Assembly: GCA_025612245.1 (NCBI GenBank)
Contig: JAAXKQ010000009.1
Span: 100,567 to 164,566 of the forward strand
DNA length: 64,000 nt
Direction of reading: 5' to 3'
From: Ignavibacteria bacterium
GTDB taxonomy: Bacteria > Bacteroidota > Ignavibacteria > Ignavibacteriales > SURF-24
This document shows positions 9,550-62,897 of this stretch, one piece after another. Each line of letters begins with the position of its first letter. The first letter of the stretch is position 1. The notes under the pieces were generated by a model that saw only the letters and a program-made list of their open reading frames with translations, was not told where the DNA came from and made no database searches. The translations under genes were made by a program, and so were the position numbers.

Positions 9550-10413
9550 CTACTTTTTGCTAAGGCTGAGGAGGGTTTCTATATTCTTCAGATCCTCGAG
9601 CTGTTCTTTTGAATCCTTCGGGGTCTCAAGTATCTTGGGGACGTTCTCAAGCCTCGTGTCGTTCATGATATTCCTGAAGCCTTCCAGGCCAATAAAGCCC
9701 TCGCCAATATGCGTATGGCGGTCGACACGGCTTCCGAGCTCCTTTTTAGAGTCGTTCATATGAATGCAGCTTAAGAGGTCAAGGCCTATGATTGCGTCAA
9801 ACTCCTTCATTGTATCTTCATATGCTTTTTCGCTTCTAAGGTCGTAGCCTGCCGCAAAAATGTGTGCCGTATCGATGCAGACCCTCATCCTGTCTTTATC
9901 TTCCACGCCGTCTATAATTATTCTTATTTCCTCAAACCGGCTTCCGAGAGTTGAACCCTGTCCTGCCGTCAGCTCCAGCATGCTTTTAACCTTAAAGTTC
10001 TGGGTCCTTTCATGTGCAGCGTTAAGCGAATCGATGATGGTCTTAAGTCCGTCCTCTACGCCGCGTCCGGTGTGAGCGCCGGGGTGGAAGTTAAGGGATT
10101 CAATCCCAAGTTTTTCGCAGCGCTCAAGTTCCTCAACAAAGGCGTCAACTGACTTTTTTAAGAGATCATCCTTACTGGCACAAAGATTAATAAGATAAGA
10201 ATCGTGGGCGATTACGGGTGAAATTTTTGTTTTACTAAGTTTATTTTTATAATTTTCAATTGTTTGTTCGCTGAGCGGTCCGTCGCTCCAGCGGTTGCCG
10301 TTTTTGGTAAATATCTGCATTGTCCGGAAGTTAAGCTTTCCTGCCAGGTCCACGGCTTTATCAACTCCGCCGGCAATTGAAGTATGTGCACCAAGTATAT
10401 GGTTAATTTTCAT
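9550..10413 (-). CDS. nfo: deoxyribonuclease IV (endonuclease IV)
   Basis: GAHTSIAGG, NFHPGAHTG, CIDTAHIFAAGYD, HMNDSK. Confidence 0.95.
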   Translation of the reverse strand: MKINHILGAHTSIAGGVDKAVDLAGKLNFRTMQIFTKNGNRWSDGPLSEQTIENYKNKLSKTKISPVIAHDSYLINLCASKDDLLKKSVDAFVEELERCEKLGIESLNFHPGAHTGRGVEDGLKTIIDSLNAAHERTQNFKVKSMLELTAGQGSTLGSRFEEIRIIIDGVEDKDRMRVCIDTAHIFAAGYDLRSEKAYEDTMKEFDAIIGLDLLSCIHMNDSKKELGSRVDRHTHIGEGFIGLEGFRNIMNDTRLENVPKILETPKDSKEQLEDLKNIETLLSLSKK

Positions 10414-10453
10414 GCGATAGTTTAAATATTTTTATTTGTAACAAATAAGTTGT

Positions 10454-11707
10454 ATGCAACGTTCACCGCTTTATGCGGTGAAAAACCAAAAAAATCTTGA
10501 GAGGATTAAAAGCAGCAATATGCAAAACTTAATTCAACTAAACAACAAGGGGAAAAAATACGTCATCGGGCTCATGTCCGGCACCTCGCTTGACGGGGTG
10601 GATGCCGTACTGCTGGAAATTACGGGTAATGGCACATCTACAAAGCTCAGGCAGATAGACTTCCTGGCCTACCCGTTTCCTGAAGGGCTCAAGGACCTTG
10701 TGCTTAAAAACTCAGCCCGCGAGACGAGCAACGTAGAAGACATCTGCAGGCTGAACTTCCTCATTCCAATGATATACGCCGATGCAATTAAGGCATTATG
10801 CAACAAGAACAGTTTCCCGCTGGAAAACCTGGATTTAATAGGAAGCCACGGGCAGACGATACACCACTTGCCGGATAAGCACAATATGTTCGGCTATGAG
10901 GTCAGGTCCACGCTTCAGATTGCGGATCCTGCCGTAATTGCAAAGTTAACCGGTGTTGTTACAGTTGGTGACTTCCGTACCGGGGATATTGCCCTTGACG
11001 GGCAGGGAGCGCCGCTAGTACCATTTTTTGATTACCTGCTCCTTTATTCGGATGAGCATAACCGCGCTTTGCTGAACGTGGGCGGGATATCGAACTTTAC
11101 CATACTTAAAAAGGGCGCAAAGCCGGCTGAAATAAGGGCTTTTGACACAGGTCCCGGCAATATGATGATAGACATACTGGCTCGCCGCTTTATGGGGAAA
11201 GAATATGATGAGGACGGTAAAACGGCACTTAGGGGAAAGGTTAATGAAAAACTTCTTGCGGCCTTAAAGGCCAAGGACACATATATAGAAAAGGCACCCC
11301 CAAAGTCGACCGGACGAGAGCTTTACGGGGAAGCTTACCTGAAAGAATTACTTGAAAAATACGTGGACGTTTCCACGGAAGACTGGATGTCGACTGTTAC
11401 AAACTTTACGGCCTATGCAATTTTCAGGAATTATGAGAAGTTCATAAGGGAGAAAATTGAAATAGACGAGCTTATTATCAGCGGCGGGGGAGCCAGGAAC
11501 CTGGCGCTCATAAAATTCCTGAAGGATTACTTTGGAGATAGTGTCAGTGTAATGAATATCGAAGAGCTAGGAATATCCTCAGATGCCAAGGAGGCAATCT
11601 GCTTTGCCGTACTGGCAAATGAGACAGTTTCAGGAAACACCTCCAACCTTCCAAGCGTAACTGGAGCTAAAAAGGAAACAATACTGGGAAAAATATGCCT
11701 GCCCTGA
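10454..11707 (+). CDS. anmK: anhydro-N-acetylmuramic acid kinase
   Basis: GLMSGTSLDGVDAV, GSHGQTIHH, NVGGISNFT, FDTGPGNMMID. Confidence 0.95.
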   Translation: MQRSPLYAVKNQKNLERIKSSNMQNLIQLNNKGKKYVIGLMSGTSLDGVDAVLLEITGNGTSTKLRQIDFLAYPFPEGLKDLVLKNSARETSNVEDICRLNFLIPMIYADAIKALCNKNSFPLENLDLIGSHGQTIHHLPDKHNMFGYEVRSTLQIADPAVIAKLTGVVTVGDFRTGDIALDGQGAPLVPFFDYLLLYSDEHNRALLNVGGISNFTILKKGAKPAEIRAFDTGPGNMMIDILARRFMGKEYDEDGKTALRGKVNEKLLAALKAKDTYIEKAPPKSTGRELYGEAYLKELLEKYVDVSTEDWMSTVTNFTAYAIFRNYEKFIREKIEIDELIISGGGARNLALIKFLKDYFGDSVSVMNIEELGISSDAKEAICFAVLANETVSGNTSNLPSVTGAKKETILGKICLP

Positions 11708-44392: not shown

Positions 44393-45973
44393 TTATTTCT
44401 TAAACTCACGGATTATCTTATCCAAATCTTCCTTGTTCATTCCGCTGCCGTATATGCCTCCGGACTTTTTTTCAGCAGACTCTCTTTCAGGTTTCTTTGT
44501 TTCAGCTGAAAAGCTAAGGCCGGGGTTCCCTGCGCGTGCCCTCAGCCGGTCCTCAATCTGCTGCATGAAGCTAGAAGAGCCCGCGGCATTTGAGCCGTAT
44601 GAGGAAACGCTCTCGCCTGAGTTTACAGGATTGACCTCAAAGGCAAGAGTCTTTACATTCATAAGGTGTTTTGCTGTTACGTTCTCTGAAACAATTGAGC
44701 CTCCCCAGGTGCCAGGTCCAAGCGTAAGGCTGGGGGCAAGAGCTGTCGTATAGCCCACAGCGCCGAGCGAATTAACCGTGTTGACCATGATTCTGAATGC
44801 GGGTTTTTCAAGGGCAAACTTCATTATTATGTCGTTATCGTTCGAGTGGATGCACATAGAGTGCCCGATGCCTCCGAAATTGAGGATTTCGATGCACTTA
44901 TGGCAGCCTTCAAGCCAGCCCTCTACTGTATAAAATGCAAGTATAGGGGAGAGCTTTTCCATCGAGAGAGGTTCATCTCTGCCGACCTTTGTAATTTCTG
45001 CAACCAGCACCCTCGTAGTTTCAGGAACGGAAAATCCCGCATACTTTGCGATCCATGGGGCGGGCATTCCCACAATATCTGGATTAATTCTCCCTTCCTT
45101 TGCAATTGCACGGGAGAGCATTGCTTTTTCTTCTCCGGCAACAAAATAACATCCCTGGGCTTTTGCTTCCTCGATTACTTTCTGATAAATCGGCCTGTCT
45201 ACAACCATGGCCTGTTCCGAGGAGCAGAGAGTGCCGTTGTCGAATGTGGTTCCGTAGACGATGTCGGCTACGGCTTTCCTGTAATTTGCAGTACGCTCGA
45301 TGAAAGCAGGCACGTTGCCGGGTCCCACTCCGTAGGCCGGTTTTCCGGCGCTATAGGCAGCCTTTACCATCGGGGTGCTTCCGGTGGCAAGAATGACGGC
45401 AACGTTTTTATCCCTCATCAGGGCTTCTGTGCCTTCAACCGTTGGTACACTCATGCACTGCATAAGTCCTTTCGGGGCTCCTGCCTTTTCAGCGGCATCA
45501 GAAATTACCCTCAGGGCTTCCATAGAGCAGTTGACTGTCCTGGGGTGAGGGCTGCATACAATGCCATTGCGGCATTTTAAAGAGATGATGGATTTGAACA
45601 TTGCCGTTGAAGTCGGGTTAGTTGACGGCACGAGTGCTGCAACTACACCCATAGGTTCGGCAATTTTTACCAGCTTACCGTTTTGCTCTGTTGCAATTAC
45701 ACCAACTGTCTTGAGATCTTTAATGTATTCGTAAACAGATTTTGTTGCGAATTCATTTTTTATCTTCTTGTCGGTCCACTTGCCGAAGCCGCTTTCCTCA
45801 CAGGCCATCTTAGCCAGGCGTTCTGCTTCGCTGTAGCCGGCATCTGCCATGGCCCTGATGATTTTATCTACCTGTTCCTGGTTATAGTGCTTGAATTCGA
45901 GTTGTGCTTCTTTGGCTTTTTTTGCCAGGTCCCTGGCTTCCTGAATTGACTGAAGGTCTTTGTCTAGATTCAT
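44393..45973 (-). CDS. CoA-acylating aldehyde dehydrogenase (PduP/EutE-like) with C-terminal encapsulation-peptide-like tail
   Basis: VPSTNPTSTAMFKSI, GTTFDNGTLCSSEQ catalytic Cys region, GAVGYTTALAPSLTLGPGTWGGS; tail GGIYGSGMNKEDLDKIIREFKK. Confidence 0.92.
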   Translation of the reverse strand: MNLDKDLQSIQEARDLAKKAKEAQLEFKHYNQEQVDKIIRAMADAGYSEAERLAKMACEESGFGKWTDKKIKNEFATKSVYEYIKDLKTVGVIATEQNGKLVKIAEPMGVVAALVPSTNPTSTAMFKSIISLKCRNGIVCSPHPRTVNCSMEALRVISDAAEKAGAPKGLMQCMSVPTVEGTEALMRDKNVAVILATGSTPMVKAAYSAGKPAYGVGPGNVPAFIERTANYRKAVADIVYGTTFDNGTLCSSEQAMVVDRPIYQKVIEEAKAQGCYFVAGEEKAMLSRAIAKEGRINPDIVGMPAPWIAKYAGFSVPETTRVLVAEITKVGRDEPLSMEKLSPILAFYTVEGWLEGCHKCIEILNFGGIGHSMCIHSNDNDIIMKFALEKPAFRIMVNTVNSLGAVGYTTALAPSLTLGPGTWGGSIVSENVTAKHLMNVKTLAFEVNPVNSGESVSSYGSNAAGSSSFMQQIEDRLRARAGNPGLSFSAETKKPERESAEKKSGGIYGSGMNKEDLDKIIREFKK

Positions 45974-56765: not shown

Positions 56766-57779
56766 ATGTTAAAAATTGGCGGGAAAATAATCAGACGTTT
56801 GAAATGGGGAGTTGCCGGGTGCGGCAATTTTGCCGAAAGGGCATTCATTCCCACTCTTCAGCTTCTGCCTAAGAGCAGGGTGAACTCCCTCTACAGCAGT
56901 GATATAAACCGTGCAAAGCTGCTGGCCGAAAAGTTCGGCGTTCAGGGCTCTTACGACAGCTTTGAGGAGTTCTTAAAAAGCGACATAGATTGCGTGTATA
57001 TTTCAAGCGCCAATCTTCATCACTACGAGCAGGTTATAAAGGCTGCAAAAGCCGGTAAACACATACTCTGCGAAAAGCCGCTGGCAGTAAATTCCGCGCA
57101 GGCAGAAGAGATGGTTAGAGCCTGTGAAGAGAACAACGTGAAGCTGGGGGTTAATTACGTATACAGGTTTCATCCGCTGGTTATCAAGGCAAAAGAGATC
57201 ATAGACAAAGGGATGCTTGGCAAGATCGTATCCGTTACGGCAAGCTTTAACACGGATTATGCGCCAAATGAAAACTTCCGTTTCAAGAAGGCTTTAAGCG
57301 GAGGCGGAGCCTTAAGGGATATCGGTACGCACATGCTGGATCTGCTGTTGTACTTCGGGGGCGAGGTTTCGGCTATTACAGGCGTTACAGACAACATCAT
57401 CTACAAAAGCGAGGTGGATGATTTTGCCGCTGCAATACTCAAGTACGAGAAAAGCGGATACGGATTCTTCAATGTTTCCTTTAACACAAAGAAAGCCTTC
57501 AACAGAGTGGAAATTTTAGGTTACGACGGGGCAATCAGTATTGAACACCTGATCGGCCGCAGCAACCATCATCCCTGCAAGCTAACGATAGATTTGAACG
57601 GAGAGGCCAGGAAGGCATTCAGGAAAAGAGGGAACAAACTTCTCTTTGCATTACGCGCTTTCCAGAAGTCTTTCTTAAACAATAAGCCACTTCTTGTCAG
57701 CGGAAGGGATGGACTTATAAATATGAAGTTAATGGAAGAGTTGGAAGGTAAAAATGTCAGTACGCAGGGAATTGATTGA
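56766..57779 (+). CDS. Gfo/Idh/MocA family oxidoreductase
   Basis: WGVAGCGNFAERAFIP, AGKHILCEKPLAVNSAQAEEMV, GGGALRDIGTHMLDL. Confidence 0.93.
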   Translation: MLKIGGKIIRRLKWGVAGCGNFAERAFIPTLQLLPKSRVNSLYSSDINRAKLLAEKFGVQGSYDSFEEFLKSDIDCVYISSANLHHYEQVIKAAKAGKHILCEKPLAVNSAQAEEMVRACEENNVKLGVNYVYRFHPLVIKAKEIIDKGMLGKIVSVTASFNTDYAPNENFRFKKALSGGGALRDIGTHMLDLLLYFGGEVSAITGVTDNIIYKSEVDDFAAAILKYEKSGYGFFNVSFNTKKAFNRVEILGYDGAISIEHLIGRSNHHPCKLTIDLNGEARKAFRKRGNKLLFALRAFQKSFLNNKPLLVSGRDGLINMKLMEELEGKNVSTQGID

Positions 57780-58401
57780 AGCCTGTCACAGGGTTTATAA
57801 TAAAGGCTTTGTTGCTGCCTATGATGGCAACCTCTCGGCCAGGATATCCGAAGAGCGAATCCTTATAACTCCTTCGGCAAAATGCAAAGGTGAACTGGAG
57901 GAAGATGACCTACTGGAGATTGACCTCGAAGGGCATCTTCTTGAAGGAAAGGGTAAAGTATCCACGGAAGTTAAAATCCATCTCTTGGCATACCGAGAAA
58001 GAAAGGACATCAATTCTGTAATACACTGTCACCCGGTTTATTCGACCGCCTTTGCAGCTACAAGAGGTGAAGGCTTTGGAAAGCCGGTCTTTCCGGAAGT
58101 CATTCTTTCACTTGGCAAGGTTCCTCTCTGCAAATACGGCACTCCCTCTACGGATGAATTACCCGAGTCAATCAGGCCGTATCTGAATTCCTCATGGGCA
58201 TTTTTGCTGGAGAACCACGGGGCGGTTACCATAGGGCGAAGCATAAAGGAGGCTTACTTCAAAATGGAAAAGCTTGAACACTCTGCGCATACTCTTTTTA
58301 TTGCCAGAACTTTGGGAGGGGAGAAGCCTTTATCAGTCGAAAATGTAAAAAAGCTTTATGATATTGCTGAAAGAGTTTACGGACTGAAGGTAAATAAATA
58401 A
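57754..58401 (+). CDS. class II aldolase/adducin family protein (L-fuculose-phosphate aldolase-like)
   Basis: GFVAAYDGNLSARI, STEVKIHLLAYRERKDINSVIHCHPVYSTAFA, LLENHGAVTIG. Confidence 0.93.
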   Translation: MSVRRELIEACHRVYNKGFVAAYDGNLSARISEERILITPSAKCKGELEEDDLLEIDLEGHLLEGKGKVSTEVKIHLLAYRERKDINSVIHCHPVYSTAFAATRGEGFGKPVFPEVILSLGKVPLCKYGTPSTDELPESIRPYLNSSWAFLLENHGAVTIGRSIKEAYFKMEKLEHSAHTLFIARTLGGEKPLSVENVKKLYDIAERVYGLKVNK

Positions 58402-61108: not shown

Positions 61109-62230
61109 TCAGGCAGTGGAGAACATTTTCCCCGGGTATTGCCTGACGAGCCCCTTAAATTCAAGCGAGAGGAGATAGACCAGGCAGTCTGAGGTTGAAA
61201 GCGAAGACATCGAAGAGATGAGGTCGATCTGTTTCGGTTCGTTATCCAGGCATGCCATCAGCTTTTCCTCGAACATATTCAGCTCCTCTTCGGCTTTGGG
61301 AATGTTTTTCCCAATGACCGGTTTAAGCTTTATTTCAAGCTCCTGAATCACGTCGTCAACTGTGCAAACAAGTTTTGCCCCGCTTCTTTGAATGAGAGCA
61401 TTTGTCCCTTCACTCTGCCTTACGCCGAGATTTCCCGGTACGGCAAAGACCTCGCGGTTCTGTTCAAGCGCAAAGGCAGCCGTCTGCATTGCGCCTCCGC
61501 TTACGCCTGATTCAACGATTATGCTCCCAAGAGAGATGCCGGAAATGATTCTGTTCCTTCTCGGGAAGTTCTGCGCATCGGGCTTGGTGCCAAGCTCAAA
61601 TTCTGTAAGTACGACGCCGTTGCGTATGATCTCCGAGAAAAGCTGCCTGTTCTCGGGGGGATAAATTACATCCAGTCCTGAGCCAATTACGGCAATTGTA
61701 CGTCCGCCAATCTTTATTGCCGACCTGTGCACAATTGAGTCAATTCCCCGGGCCATTCCGCTTACAACCGTTACGCCCTGGCTGCAGAGGTCCGAAGAAA
61801 ATTTTTCGGCCTGAACTTTCCCGTAATTGGAAGGCTGACGCGTTCCCACGATGGCAACCGAATAGTTGTCAGCTTCGGTAAAAGAGCCCAGTGCATAGAG
61901 TATCAAGGGCGGGTCGTAGATCTTCTTCAGAAGCGGAGGGTATTCAGGGTCCCAGACCGTAATTACTGAGGCTCCCATTTGCGAAAGCCTTTCTATTTCT
62001 TCCTTAATCTTCTTTCTGAATATGTCCCTGGTCAGTGAAGCTTGTCTTATGCGCTGTGCCAGTATCTTGTTTATCTGGTCTGTTTTAGTGAGTTCATTGT
62101 GGCTTGCCGAAAGGATGCTGTTCAGGGATTTGAACTGGGCAAGCAGGTTTCTGATCTTGCCCGGTCCTATGCCTTCTACGTTAAGCAGAAGTCTGAGTGA
62201 GACAAATTGCTCAAAATTAAGCCTTGTCAC
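61109..62230 (-). CDS. dprA: DNA-processing protein DprA
   Basis: VAIVGTRQPSNYG, VVSGMARGIDSIVHRSA, GSGLDVIYPPENR, FAVPGNLG. Confidence 0.95.
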   Translation of the reverse strand: MTRLNFEQFVSLRLLLNVEGIGPGKIRNLLAQFKSLNSILSASHNELTKTDQINKILAQRIRQASLTRDIFRKKIKEEIERLSQMGASVITVWDPEYPPLLKKIYDPPLILYALGSFTEADNYSVAIVGTRQPSNYGKVQAEKFSSDLCSQGVTVVSGMARGIDSIVHRSAIKIGGRTIAVIGSGLDVIYPPENRQLFSEIIRNGVVLTEFELGTKPDAQNFPRRNRIISGISLGSIIVESGVSGGAMQTAAFALEQNREVFAVPGNLGVRQSEGTNALIQRSGAKLVCTVDDVIQELEIKLKPVIGKNIPKAEEELNMFEEKLMACLDNEPKQIDLISSMSSLSTSDCLVYLLSLEFKGLVRQYPGKMFSTA

Positions 62231-62254: not shown

Positions 62255-62530
62255 TTATTTTTCTACGTCAATATCGTCAACAATTGCAACAATCATCGTA
62301 TTAACGGGAGCCTTCTTATGCCCTAATATCTGCTGTACGGCATCGCCCTCCTGTGCGACAAGAACGGTATCCCCAATACCGGAGTCGATAAGGTCAAGGG
62401 CAATAACGTCTTTATTGCCGGTGAAATTTCCCTTTAGGTCTACTTTCTGAACCAGCAGGAGTTTATGTCCCTGTAAGTACCGGTTCTTCTGTGTAGAGAT
62501 TACGTTTCCTTTAACTCTGCCCAGGAACAT
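62255..62530 (-). CDS. EutN/CcmL-family bacterial microcompartment vertex (BMC-P) protein
   Basis: MFLGRVKGNVISTQKNRYLQGHKLLLVQKVD...VIALDLIDSGIGDTVLVAQEGDAVQQILG...APVNTMIVAIVDDIDVE follows the family pattern along its length. Confidence 0.93.
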   Translation of the reverse strand: MFLGRVKGNVISTQKNRYLQGHKLLLVQKVDLKGNFTGNKDVIALDLIDSGIGDTVLVAQEGDAVQQILGHKKAPVNTMIVAIVDDIDVEK

Positions 62531-62795
62531 TGTCTGCCTTTTTGTCATTCTGCTTTTTTCTGAAAAAGATTGCAGCAGGCAGCACAACCAGATAGCCAAT
62601 CAAAAGGAGTATTGGCGAGAGGTTAAGGGAAACAGGATTATCCCATTTGCCAAGGGACATGACGAAAAAGCCCGCAATTAGAATGACTGCTCCTAAAATG
62701 AGCAGGTAATAGTTTTCCTTTACCCAGTAGTTTGTAAAAGGTGACGAATAAGATTTTTTTACAGGTCTTGCGTTTTTCTTTACTGTTTTTGACAT
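62511..62795 (-). CDS. small two-TM membrane protein (DUF3098-like)
   Basis: WVKENYYLLILGAVILIAGFFVMSLGKWDNP...LSPILLLIGYLVVLPAAIFFRK; overlaps the BMC-P start. Confidence 0.75.
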   Translation of the reverse strand: MSKTVKKNARPVKKSYSSPFTNYWVKENYYLLILGAVILIAGFFVMSLGKWDNPVSLNLSPILLLIGYLVVLPAAIFFRKKQNDKKADNVPGQS

Positions 62796-62828
62796 ATAGT
62801 TGAATTCCCAAAAATAGGATTAAAAAAA

Positions 62829-62897
62829 GCCCAGTGTTGGGGGGACACTGGGCCGACTCGTCATTTCAAAGTTCTGGGGAGAGAACTTTGATGAGTC
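62829..62897 (-). terminator. two adjacent hairpins downstream of the 62915-63172 gene
   Basis: gcccagtgt-tgggggg-acactgggc with an A-run on the + strand side, and tcaaagttct-ggggag-agaactttga. Confidence 0.7.

What the first reader, a model, noticed from the sequence alone, without database searches (positions are those of the whole stretch)
62255..62530. Isolated microcompartment vertex protein (EutN/CcmL) next to dprA
The minus-strand ORF matches the EutN/CcmL pentamer family along its length (GRVxGxVxSTQK, GHKLLLVQ, SGIGDTVLVAQEGDAVQQIL, APVNTMIVAIVD). No hexameric BMC-H/T shell gene is visible in the window, so it is either a satellite of a BMC locus elsewhere or a shell-protein homologue used outside a compartment. 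It overlaps a small DUF3098-like membrane protein gene, which is an unusual neighbour.
Basis: partly seen in the sequence, partly recalled or inferred. Interest (0 to 1): 0.72.

Follow-up and report, generated by a model that had tools for sequence, protein, structure and literature searches.

The report
Scattered DNA-sugar microcompartment: vertex and enzyme
The lone shell-vertex gene is one piece of a complete bacterial microcompartment whose genes are scattered over the genome, and the tagged enzymes that travel with it suggest that this so far unexplained organelle breaks down deoxyribose, the sugar of DNA.

Summary
In detail: window 62255-62530 (-) is a BMC-P vertex protein (PF03319, 84.9 bits). 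It is not an orphan. The genome has two more BMC-P, two BMC-H and a PduT-like BMC-T beside a PduS gene, on three other contigs. This is the FRAG type catalogued in 2021 in Ignavibacteriae, function unknown. The scatter is ordered: in class relatives the vertex pair sits beside rpoD (usually also deoB), BMC-T beside pduS, and the lone vertex just upstream of dprA. New here is the likely cargo. (1) An acetylating acetaldehyde dehydrogenase with a C-terminal encapsulation-type tail lies in this same window (44393-45973); orthologues occur in 29/29 FRAG genomes, and the one strong hit among 18 shell-less genomes lacks the tail. (2) DeoC carries an N-terminal encapsulation-like extension in all 29 class FRAG genomes read and 6 of 7 outside it; shell-less relatives lack it. 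PduL is absent from 30/30 FRAG genomes. Best reading: a dispersed deoxyribose-5-phosphate metabolosome, chemically like SPU, with electrons leaving through PduS/PduT. The nearby class II aldolase is rejected as signature enzyme; the dprA link looks positional. Encapsulation and substrate remain untested.

The parts
62255..62530 (-). BMC-P (EutN/CcmL family) shell vertex protein, 91 aa
   Evidence: PF03319 84.9 bits; fold match to CcmL/EutN/HO BMC-P; 80 orthologous loci
44393..45973 (-). Acetylating acetaldehyde dehydrogenase, 526 aa, proposed compartment cargo
   Evidence: TIGR02518 620.7 bits over cut-off; orthologue in 29/29 FRAG genomes; tail conserved
44396..44449 (-). C-terminal encapsulation-type tail GSGMNKEDLDKIIREFKK of that enzyme
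   Evidence: linker plus amphipathic tail in every class orthologue read; hydrophobic moment at the 96th percentile of background for the own sequence, range 67-99.8 among relatives
61109..62230 (-). dprA, conserved downstream neighbour of this BMC-P; not proposed as part of the compartment
   Evidence: next gene in 29/30 and 78/80 loci; link absent outside the class
62511..62795 (-). small DUF3098-like membrane protein gene, overlapping neighbour; not proposed as part of the compartment
   Evidence: 26.1 bits against cut-off 25; upstream in 62/80 loci
57754..58401 (+). class II aldolase, considered and rejected as signature enzyme
   Evidence: no extension or tail; orthologue-level hits (44-50%) also in shell-less G007, G016, G042, G051, G086

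Best explanation
The BMC-P caps vertices of a complete but genomically scattered (FRAG-type) metabolosome. Shown by sequence: three BMC-P, two BMC-H, a PduT-like BMC-T with the pore cysteine, a PduS homologue, an acetaldehyde dehydrogenase with a C-terminal tail and a DeoC with an N-terminal extension, found together across relatives. Inferred: deoxyribose-5-phosphate, made by DeoB (encoded next to the vertex pair), enters the shell; [quoted passage not shown] the tailed dehydrogenase turns acetaldehyde into acetyl-CoA and NADH; PduS passes electrons to the iron-sulphur pore of the BMC-T and out to the cytosol, so that no alcohol dehydrogenase is needed. PduL is absent, so acetyl-CoA either leaves the shell or is handled by an enzyme not identified here. 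Scatter among housekeeping genes suggests constitutive rather than substrate-induced expression.
For: Shell set in the own genome. AldDH strong hit in 29/29 FRAG genomes; among 18 shell-less genomes one strong hit, untailed. DeoC extension in 29/29 class FRAG genomes read and 6/7 of other classes, absent in shell-less relatives, two of which (G007, G062) nest inside the extended clade. An SPU locus of relative G082 encodes the same DeoC/AldDH combination together with shell genes. deoB upstream of the vertex pair in 16/20 and rpoD downstream in 20/20. PduS beside BMC-T 10/10, pore motif CSGKY in 10/10 (motif PMC6325248). BMC-Ha 91-99% identical across families, a sign of strong constraint.
Against: No experiment shows encapsulation or substrate. 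G102 has the FRAG BMC-P and AldDH but an unextended DeoC. The DeoC N-terminal helix is only moderately amphipathic by hydrophobic moment. Genomes are related, so the counts are not independent. PduL is missing and the fate of acetyl-CoA is open. RpiB, the other SPU marker, was not searched.
Confidence: 0.68

Rival explanations
1. The FRAG shell is real, but its signature enzyme is a class II (fuculose/rhamnulose-type) aldolase as in PVM-like compartments, for instance the one 4 kb away at 57754-58401.
For: It is close to the BMC-P in the window and in 40 of 80 related loci, and is found in 23 of 24 FRAG genomes tested. PVM, ACI and GRM5 types use PF00596 aldolases (PMC8217296).
Against: Comparable orthologues occur in shell-less genomes. 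The window protein has no extension or tail. The nearness is shared with several unrelated genes of the same block.
Confidence: 0.05
2. The compartment processes acetaldehyde from another source, such as ethanol or ethanolamine; DeoC is incidental or works in the reverse direction.
For: DeoC is reversible (general knowledge); the AldDH is linked to FRAG a little more strictly than the DeoC extension (G102); the AldDH belongs to the EutE-like acetylating family.
Against: The DeoC extension tracks the shell; deoB lies at the vertex-pair address; an SPU locus has the same pair of enzymes.
Confidence: 0.15
3. This BMC-P is an orphan used outside any compartment, for example as a partner of DprA in DNA uptake.
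For: Tight, class-wide operon-like link to dprA.
Against: Outside the class FRAG genomes keep a lone BMC-P without dprA beside it. Every other shell gene is also locked to housekeeping neighbours. BMC-P occurs with the rest of the shell set.
Confidence: 0.04
4. The shell genes are relics that are no longer assembled.
For: Scattered genes, no regulator, incomplete core.
Against: All shell genes are intact and conserved over many families, BMC-Ha at 91-99% identity.
Confidence: 0.04

Closest known systems
FRAG bacterial microcompartments (Sutter et al. 2021, PMC8217296)
   Same: Shell genes at several genomic places, three BMC-P, reported from Ignavibacteriae and related phyla.
   Different: The catalogue gives no signature enzyme. 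Here a tailed AldDH and an extended DeoC are tied to the shell by co-occurrence, and the gene addresses are shown to be conserved.
SPU (sugar phosphate utilization) metabolosomes (PMC4207490, PMC8217296)
   Same: DeoC-type aldolase plus AldDH. The AldDH is 50% identical to that of an SPU-type locus in a relative, and the DeoC extensions share a segment.
   Different: SPU genes are clustered in one locus and include RpiB, mostly with PduL; here genes are scattered and PduL is absent.
HO compartment of Haliangium ochraceum
   Same: BMC-P triplet, AldDH without an adjacent signature enzyme, and in some genomes a remote DeoC with an EP-like extension (PMC8217296).
   Different: HO has a main locus with several BMC-T, including double-stacked ones; here a single PduT-like BMC-T.
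PduS/PduT electron-transfer pair of Pdu and GRM compartments (PMC2982820, PMC6325248)
   Same: The four PduS Pfam domains and an adjacent BMC-T with the pore cysteine motif.
   Different: No cobalamin-dependent or glycyl-radical enzyme is implied here. The BMC-T scores 121 bits against the TIGR02526 cut-off of 250, so it is a relative, not a PduT orthologue by that model.

Membership tests
EutN/CcmL BMC-P family (PF03319) | Match over the curated Pfam cut-off along the domain | tested here: met
   84.9 bits against 25, positions 1-83 of 83
EutN/CcmL BMC-P family (PF03319) | Pentamer assembly | not testable with these tools
   Only a single chain was modelled; it has the family fold
FRAG microcompartment | Shell genes dispersed over several genomic places | tested here: met
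   Four contigs: C11, C31, C17, C23
FRAG microcompartment | Three BMC-P genes (triplet) | tested here: met
   Three PF03319 genes, two adjacent and one alone
FRAG microcompartment | Shell-protein subtypes as in the published HMM classes | not tested
   The catalogue's subtype HMMs were not available
SPU metabolosome | DeoC-type aldolase with encapsulation signal | tested here: met
   TIGR00126 over cut-off, N-extension; encapsulation itself untested
SPU metabolosome | RpiB (PF02502) | not tested
SPU metabolosome | Enzymes and shell genes in one locus | tested here: not met
   Genes on different contigs or about 16 kb apart; hence filed as SPU-like in chemistry only
Complete metabolosome core | PduL phosphotransacylase | tested here: not met
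   Absent from G000 and from 30/30 FRAG genomes
BMC cargo by encapsulation peptide | Terminal 15-20 residue amphipathic helix joined by a flexible linker | tested here: inconclusive
   AldDH tail fits well; DeoC N-helix fits the pattern but with modest hydrophobic moment
PVM-like compartment | Class II aldolase locus with PduL and clustered shell genes | tested here: not met
   No such locus in G000; G013, G062, G093 have one and look different

The most novel reading that the evidence does not exclude
FRAG compartments of this phylum are a constitutive, housekeeping organelle for the sugar of DNA, kept by descent at fixed scattered addresses beside rpoD, deoB and dprA, and possibly fed by taken-up or recycled DNA: a metabolosome outside the usual one-operon, substrate-induced pattern.
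Probability: 0.25. Interest if true: 0.8.

Novelty: new variant of a known kind. Interest (0 to 1): 0.6.

Why it matters
The 2021 catalogue left the function of FRAG compartments open and listed them among types without an obvious signature enzyme. A specific, testable assignment (extended DeoC plus tailed acetaldehyde dehydrogenase, with PduS/PduT for electrons) would turn a class defined only by its shell genes into a metabolic prediction for many uncultured bacteria. It also shows that the genes of one organelle can be kept at scattered but fixed places in the genome over a whole class.

Tried and rejected
Class II aldolase as signature enzyme: rejected. PduL-based core: absent. Orphan BMC-P serving DprA: not supported. 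Clustered BMC loci of G013, G062 and G093 as a guide to the cargo: PVM-like, a different compartment; the SPU-type locus of G082 was the useful guide. A fused BMC-P suggested in G063 (1755-aa frame) is an artefact of masked N sequence. Searches in the held open-access library found no functional assignment for FRAG; papers outside that library were not searched.

Full report
OBSERVATION. The minus-strand ORF at 62255-62530 encodes a 91-aa BMC-P protein. PF03319 scores 84.9 bits over the full model; NCBIfam shows weaker matches to CcmL, EutN and CsoS4, none over its cut-off. The predicted fold matches CcmL, EutN, GrpN and the Haliangium BMC-P. The gene overlaps the DUF3098-like gene by 20 nt, and dprA follows after 24 nt.

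NOT AN ORPHAN. The window is G000:C11:100567-164566 and ends at the contig end. The genome has two more BMC-P side by side on C31, two BMC-H on C17 and one tandem BMC-T on C23. On C31 the pair lies between deoB and an rpoD-type sigma factor; on C17 the BMC-H pair follows a ruvX-like gene; on C23 the BMC-T follows a PduS-like gene and a SpoIIE-type phosphatase. This is the FRAG arrangement of Sutter et al. 2021 (PMC8217296), reported from Ignavibacteriae and described there as enigmatic.

FIXED ADDRESSES. Of 99 genomes of the class, 38 have PF03319. In 29 of 30 fetched loci of lone BMC-P genes dprA is the next gene downstream on the same strand; the thirtieth is a different BMC-P of G063. A scan of GTDB contigs gave 80 loci: dprA follows within 1.5 kb in 78 and lies just over 1.5 kb downstream in the other two. 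The vertex pair is followed by rpoD in 20 of 20 genomes, with deoB upstream in 16; PduS is beside BMC-T in 10 of 10; the BMC-H pair is intact in 10 of 10, its first member 91-99% identical to the window genome's. Outside the class the vertex pair keeps rpoD as next neighbour in three of five genomes fetched (G102, G158, G103); in a fourth, G163, deoB is adjacent and rpoD 4 kb away. The lone BMC-P there has other neighbours, for example a phosphomutase-like gene. So the dprA link belongs to this class only, while fixed housekeeping neighbours are common to the vertex pair as well.

CARGO 1. The AldDH of an SPU-type locus in relative G082 (L014) was used as query. It gives a strong hit (485-541 bits) in 20 of 20 FRAG genomes of the class and none in nine shell-less genomes; G062, which has only a PVM-like locus, gives 120 bits. 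In the own genome the hit lies in this window, 44393-45973 (-). The window protein in turn finds strong orthologues in G187 and in eight of eight FRAG genomes of other classes; of nine further genomes without a BMC-P match, only G106 has a strong hit (45% identity), and it lacks the tail. The protein meets TIGR02518, acetylating acetaldehyde dehydrogenase, by a narrow margin (620.7 against 620.1 bits); among its closest solved structures is an acetylating acetaldehyde dehydrogenase (5j78). Every class orthologue read ends in a variable linker and a tail of the kind YGSGISEEEIEKIIKEF.

CARGO 2. DeoC proteins of FRAG genomes have about 70 residues before the aldolase domain: a helix such as IDKVVSQVFIEKAL, a cysteine-bearing linker, and a segment shared with the DeoC of the G082 locus. 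This was read in 28 class genomes and G187, and in six of seven genomes of other classes, G102 being the exception. Relatives without a FRAG shell (G007, G014, G001, G062, G051) have DeoC without it. In the tree G007 and G062 fall inside the extended clade (98/88), which indicates that the extension was lost where the shell was lost; some long branches leave the deeper order unsure. The own DeoC is a deoxyribose-phosphate aldolase by curated model and by alignment with solved enzymes.

ELECTRONS. The BMC-T is closest to PduT structures and has CSGKY at the cluster site, as do ten relatives; the published motif is C-[PSA]-G-[KRS]-[YF] (PMC6325248). The neighbouring gene has the four domains of PduS. 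In the Pdu system PduS binds PduT and the pair may pass electrons out of the shell (PMC2982820). By analogy this pair could re-oxidise the NADH made by the AldDH.

WHAT IS MISSING. PduL is absent from all 30 FRAG genomes searched and appears only with PVM-like loci. The class II aldolase at 57754-58401 also occurs in genomes without shells and carries no tag. RpiB and other phosphotransacetylases were not searched.

MECHANISM. Shown: presence, co-occurrence, tags and domain identities. Inferred: encapsulation, substrate, direction of flux, electron route and constitutive expression. The counts are not independent, because the genomes are related; the best independent support is the joint absence of shell, AldDH and DeoC extension in lineages of families f4 (G051), f9 (G007) and f18 (G042, whose DeoC is of another subfamily) that have FRAG-bearing or SPU-bearing relatives.

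VERDICT. It belongs to a known but functionally unassigned kind (FRAG). The new part is a specific hypothesis for the cargo and the chemistry.

Noticed in passing
G013: L012, and contigs C17, C36, C45: G013 has the FRAG BMC-H pair, BMC-T, tailed AldDH and extended DeoC, but its only three BMC-P genes lie together in a PVM-like locus, as if one vertex set served two compartments.
   Followed up: partly
L013:4044-4901 and 9685-10458: G090 carries a second BMC-P triplet, about 5 kb from a class II aldolase, besides its FRAG pair and lone BMC-P.
   Followed up: no
L048:5959-6837 and DeoC of L052, L065, L070, L074: The DeoC extension holds conserved cysteines (such as CKDGICTDGLCVVH) between helix and enzyme, which could bind a metal or cluster.
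   Followed up: no
L009:10444-11064: The second BMC-H has an acidic C-terminal extension of about 110 residues (206 aa in all), and extensions of differing length occur in relatives.
   Followed up: no
window 62828-62854: Terminator-like hairpin on the minus strand just upstream of the DUF3098 gene, which would leave DUF3098, BMC-P and dprA in one transcription unit; the number of such sites in the region is near chance.
   Followed up: no
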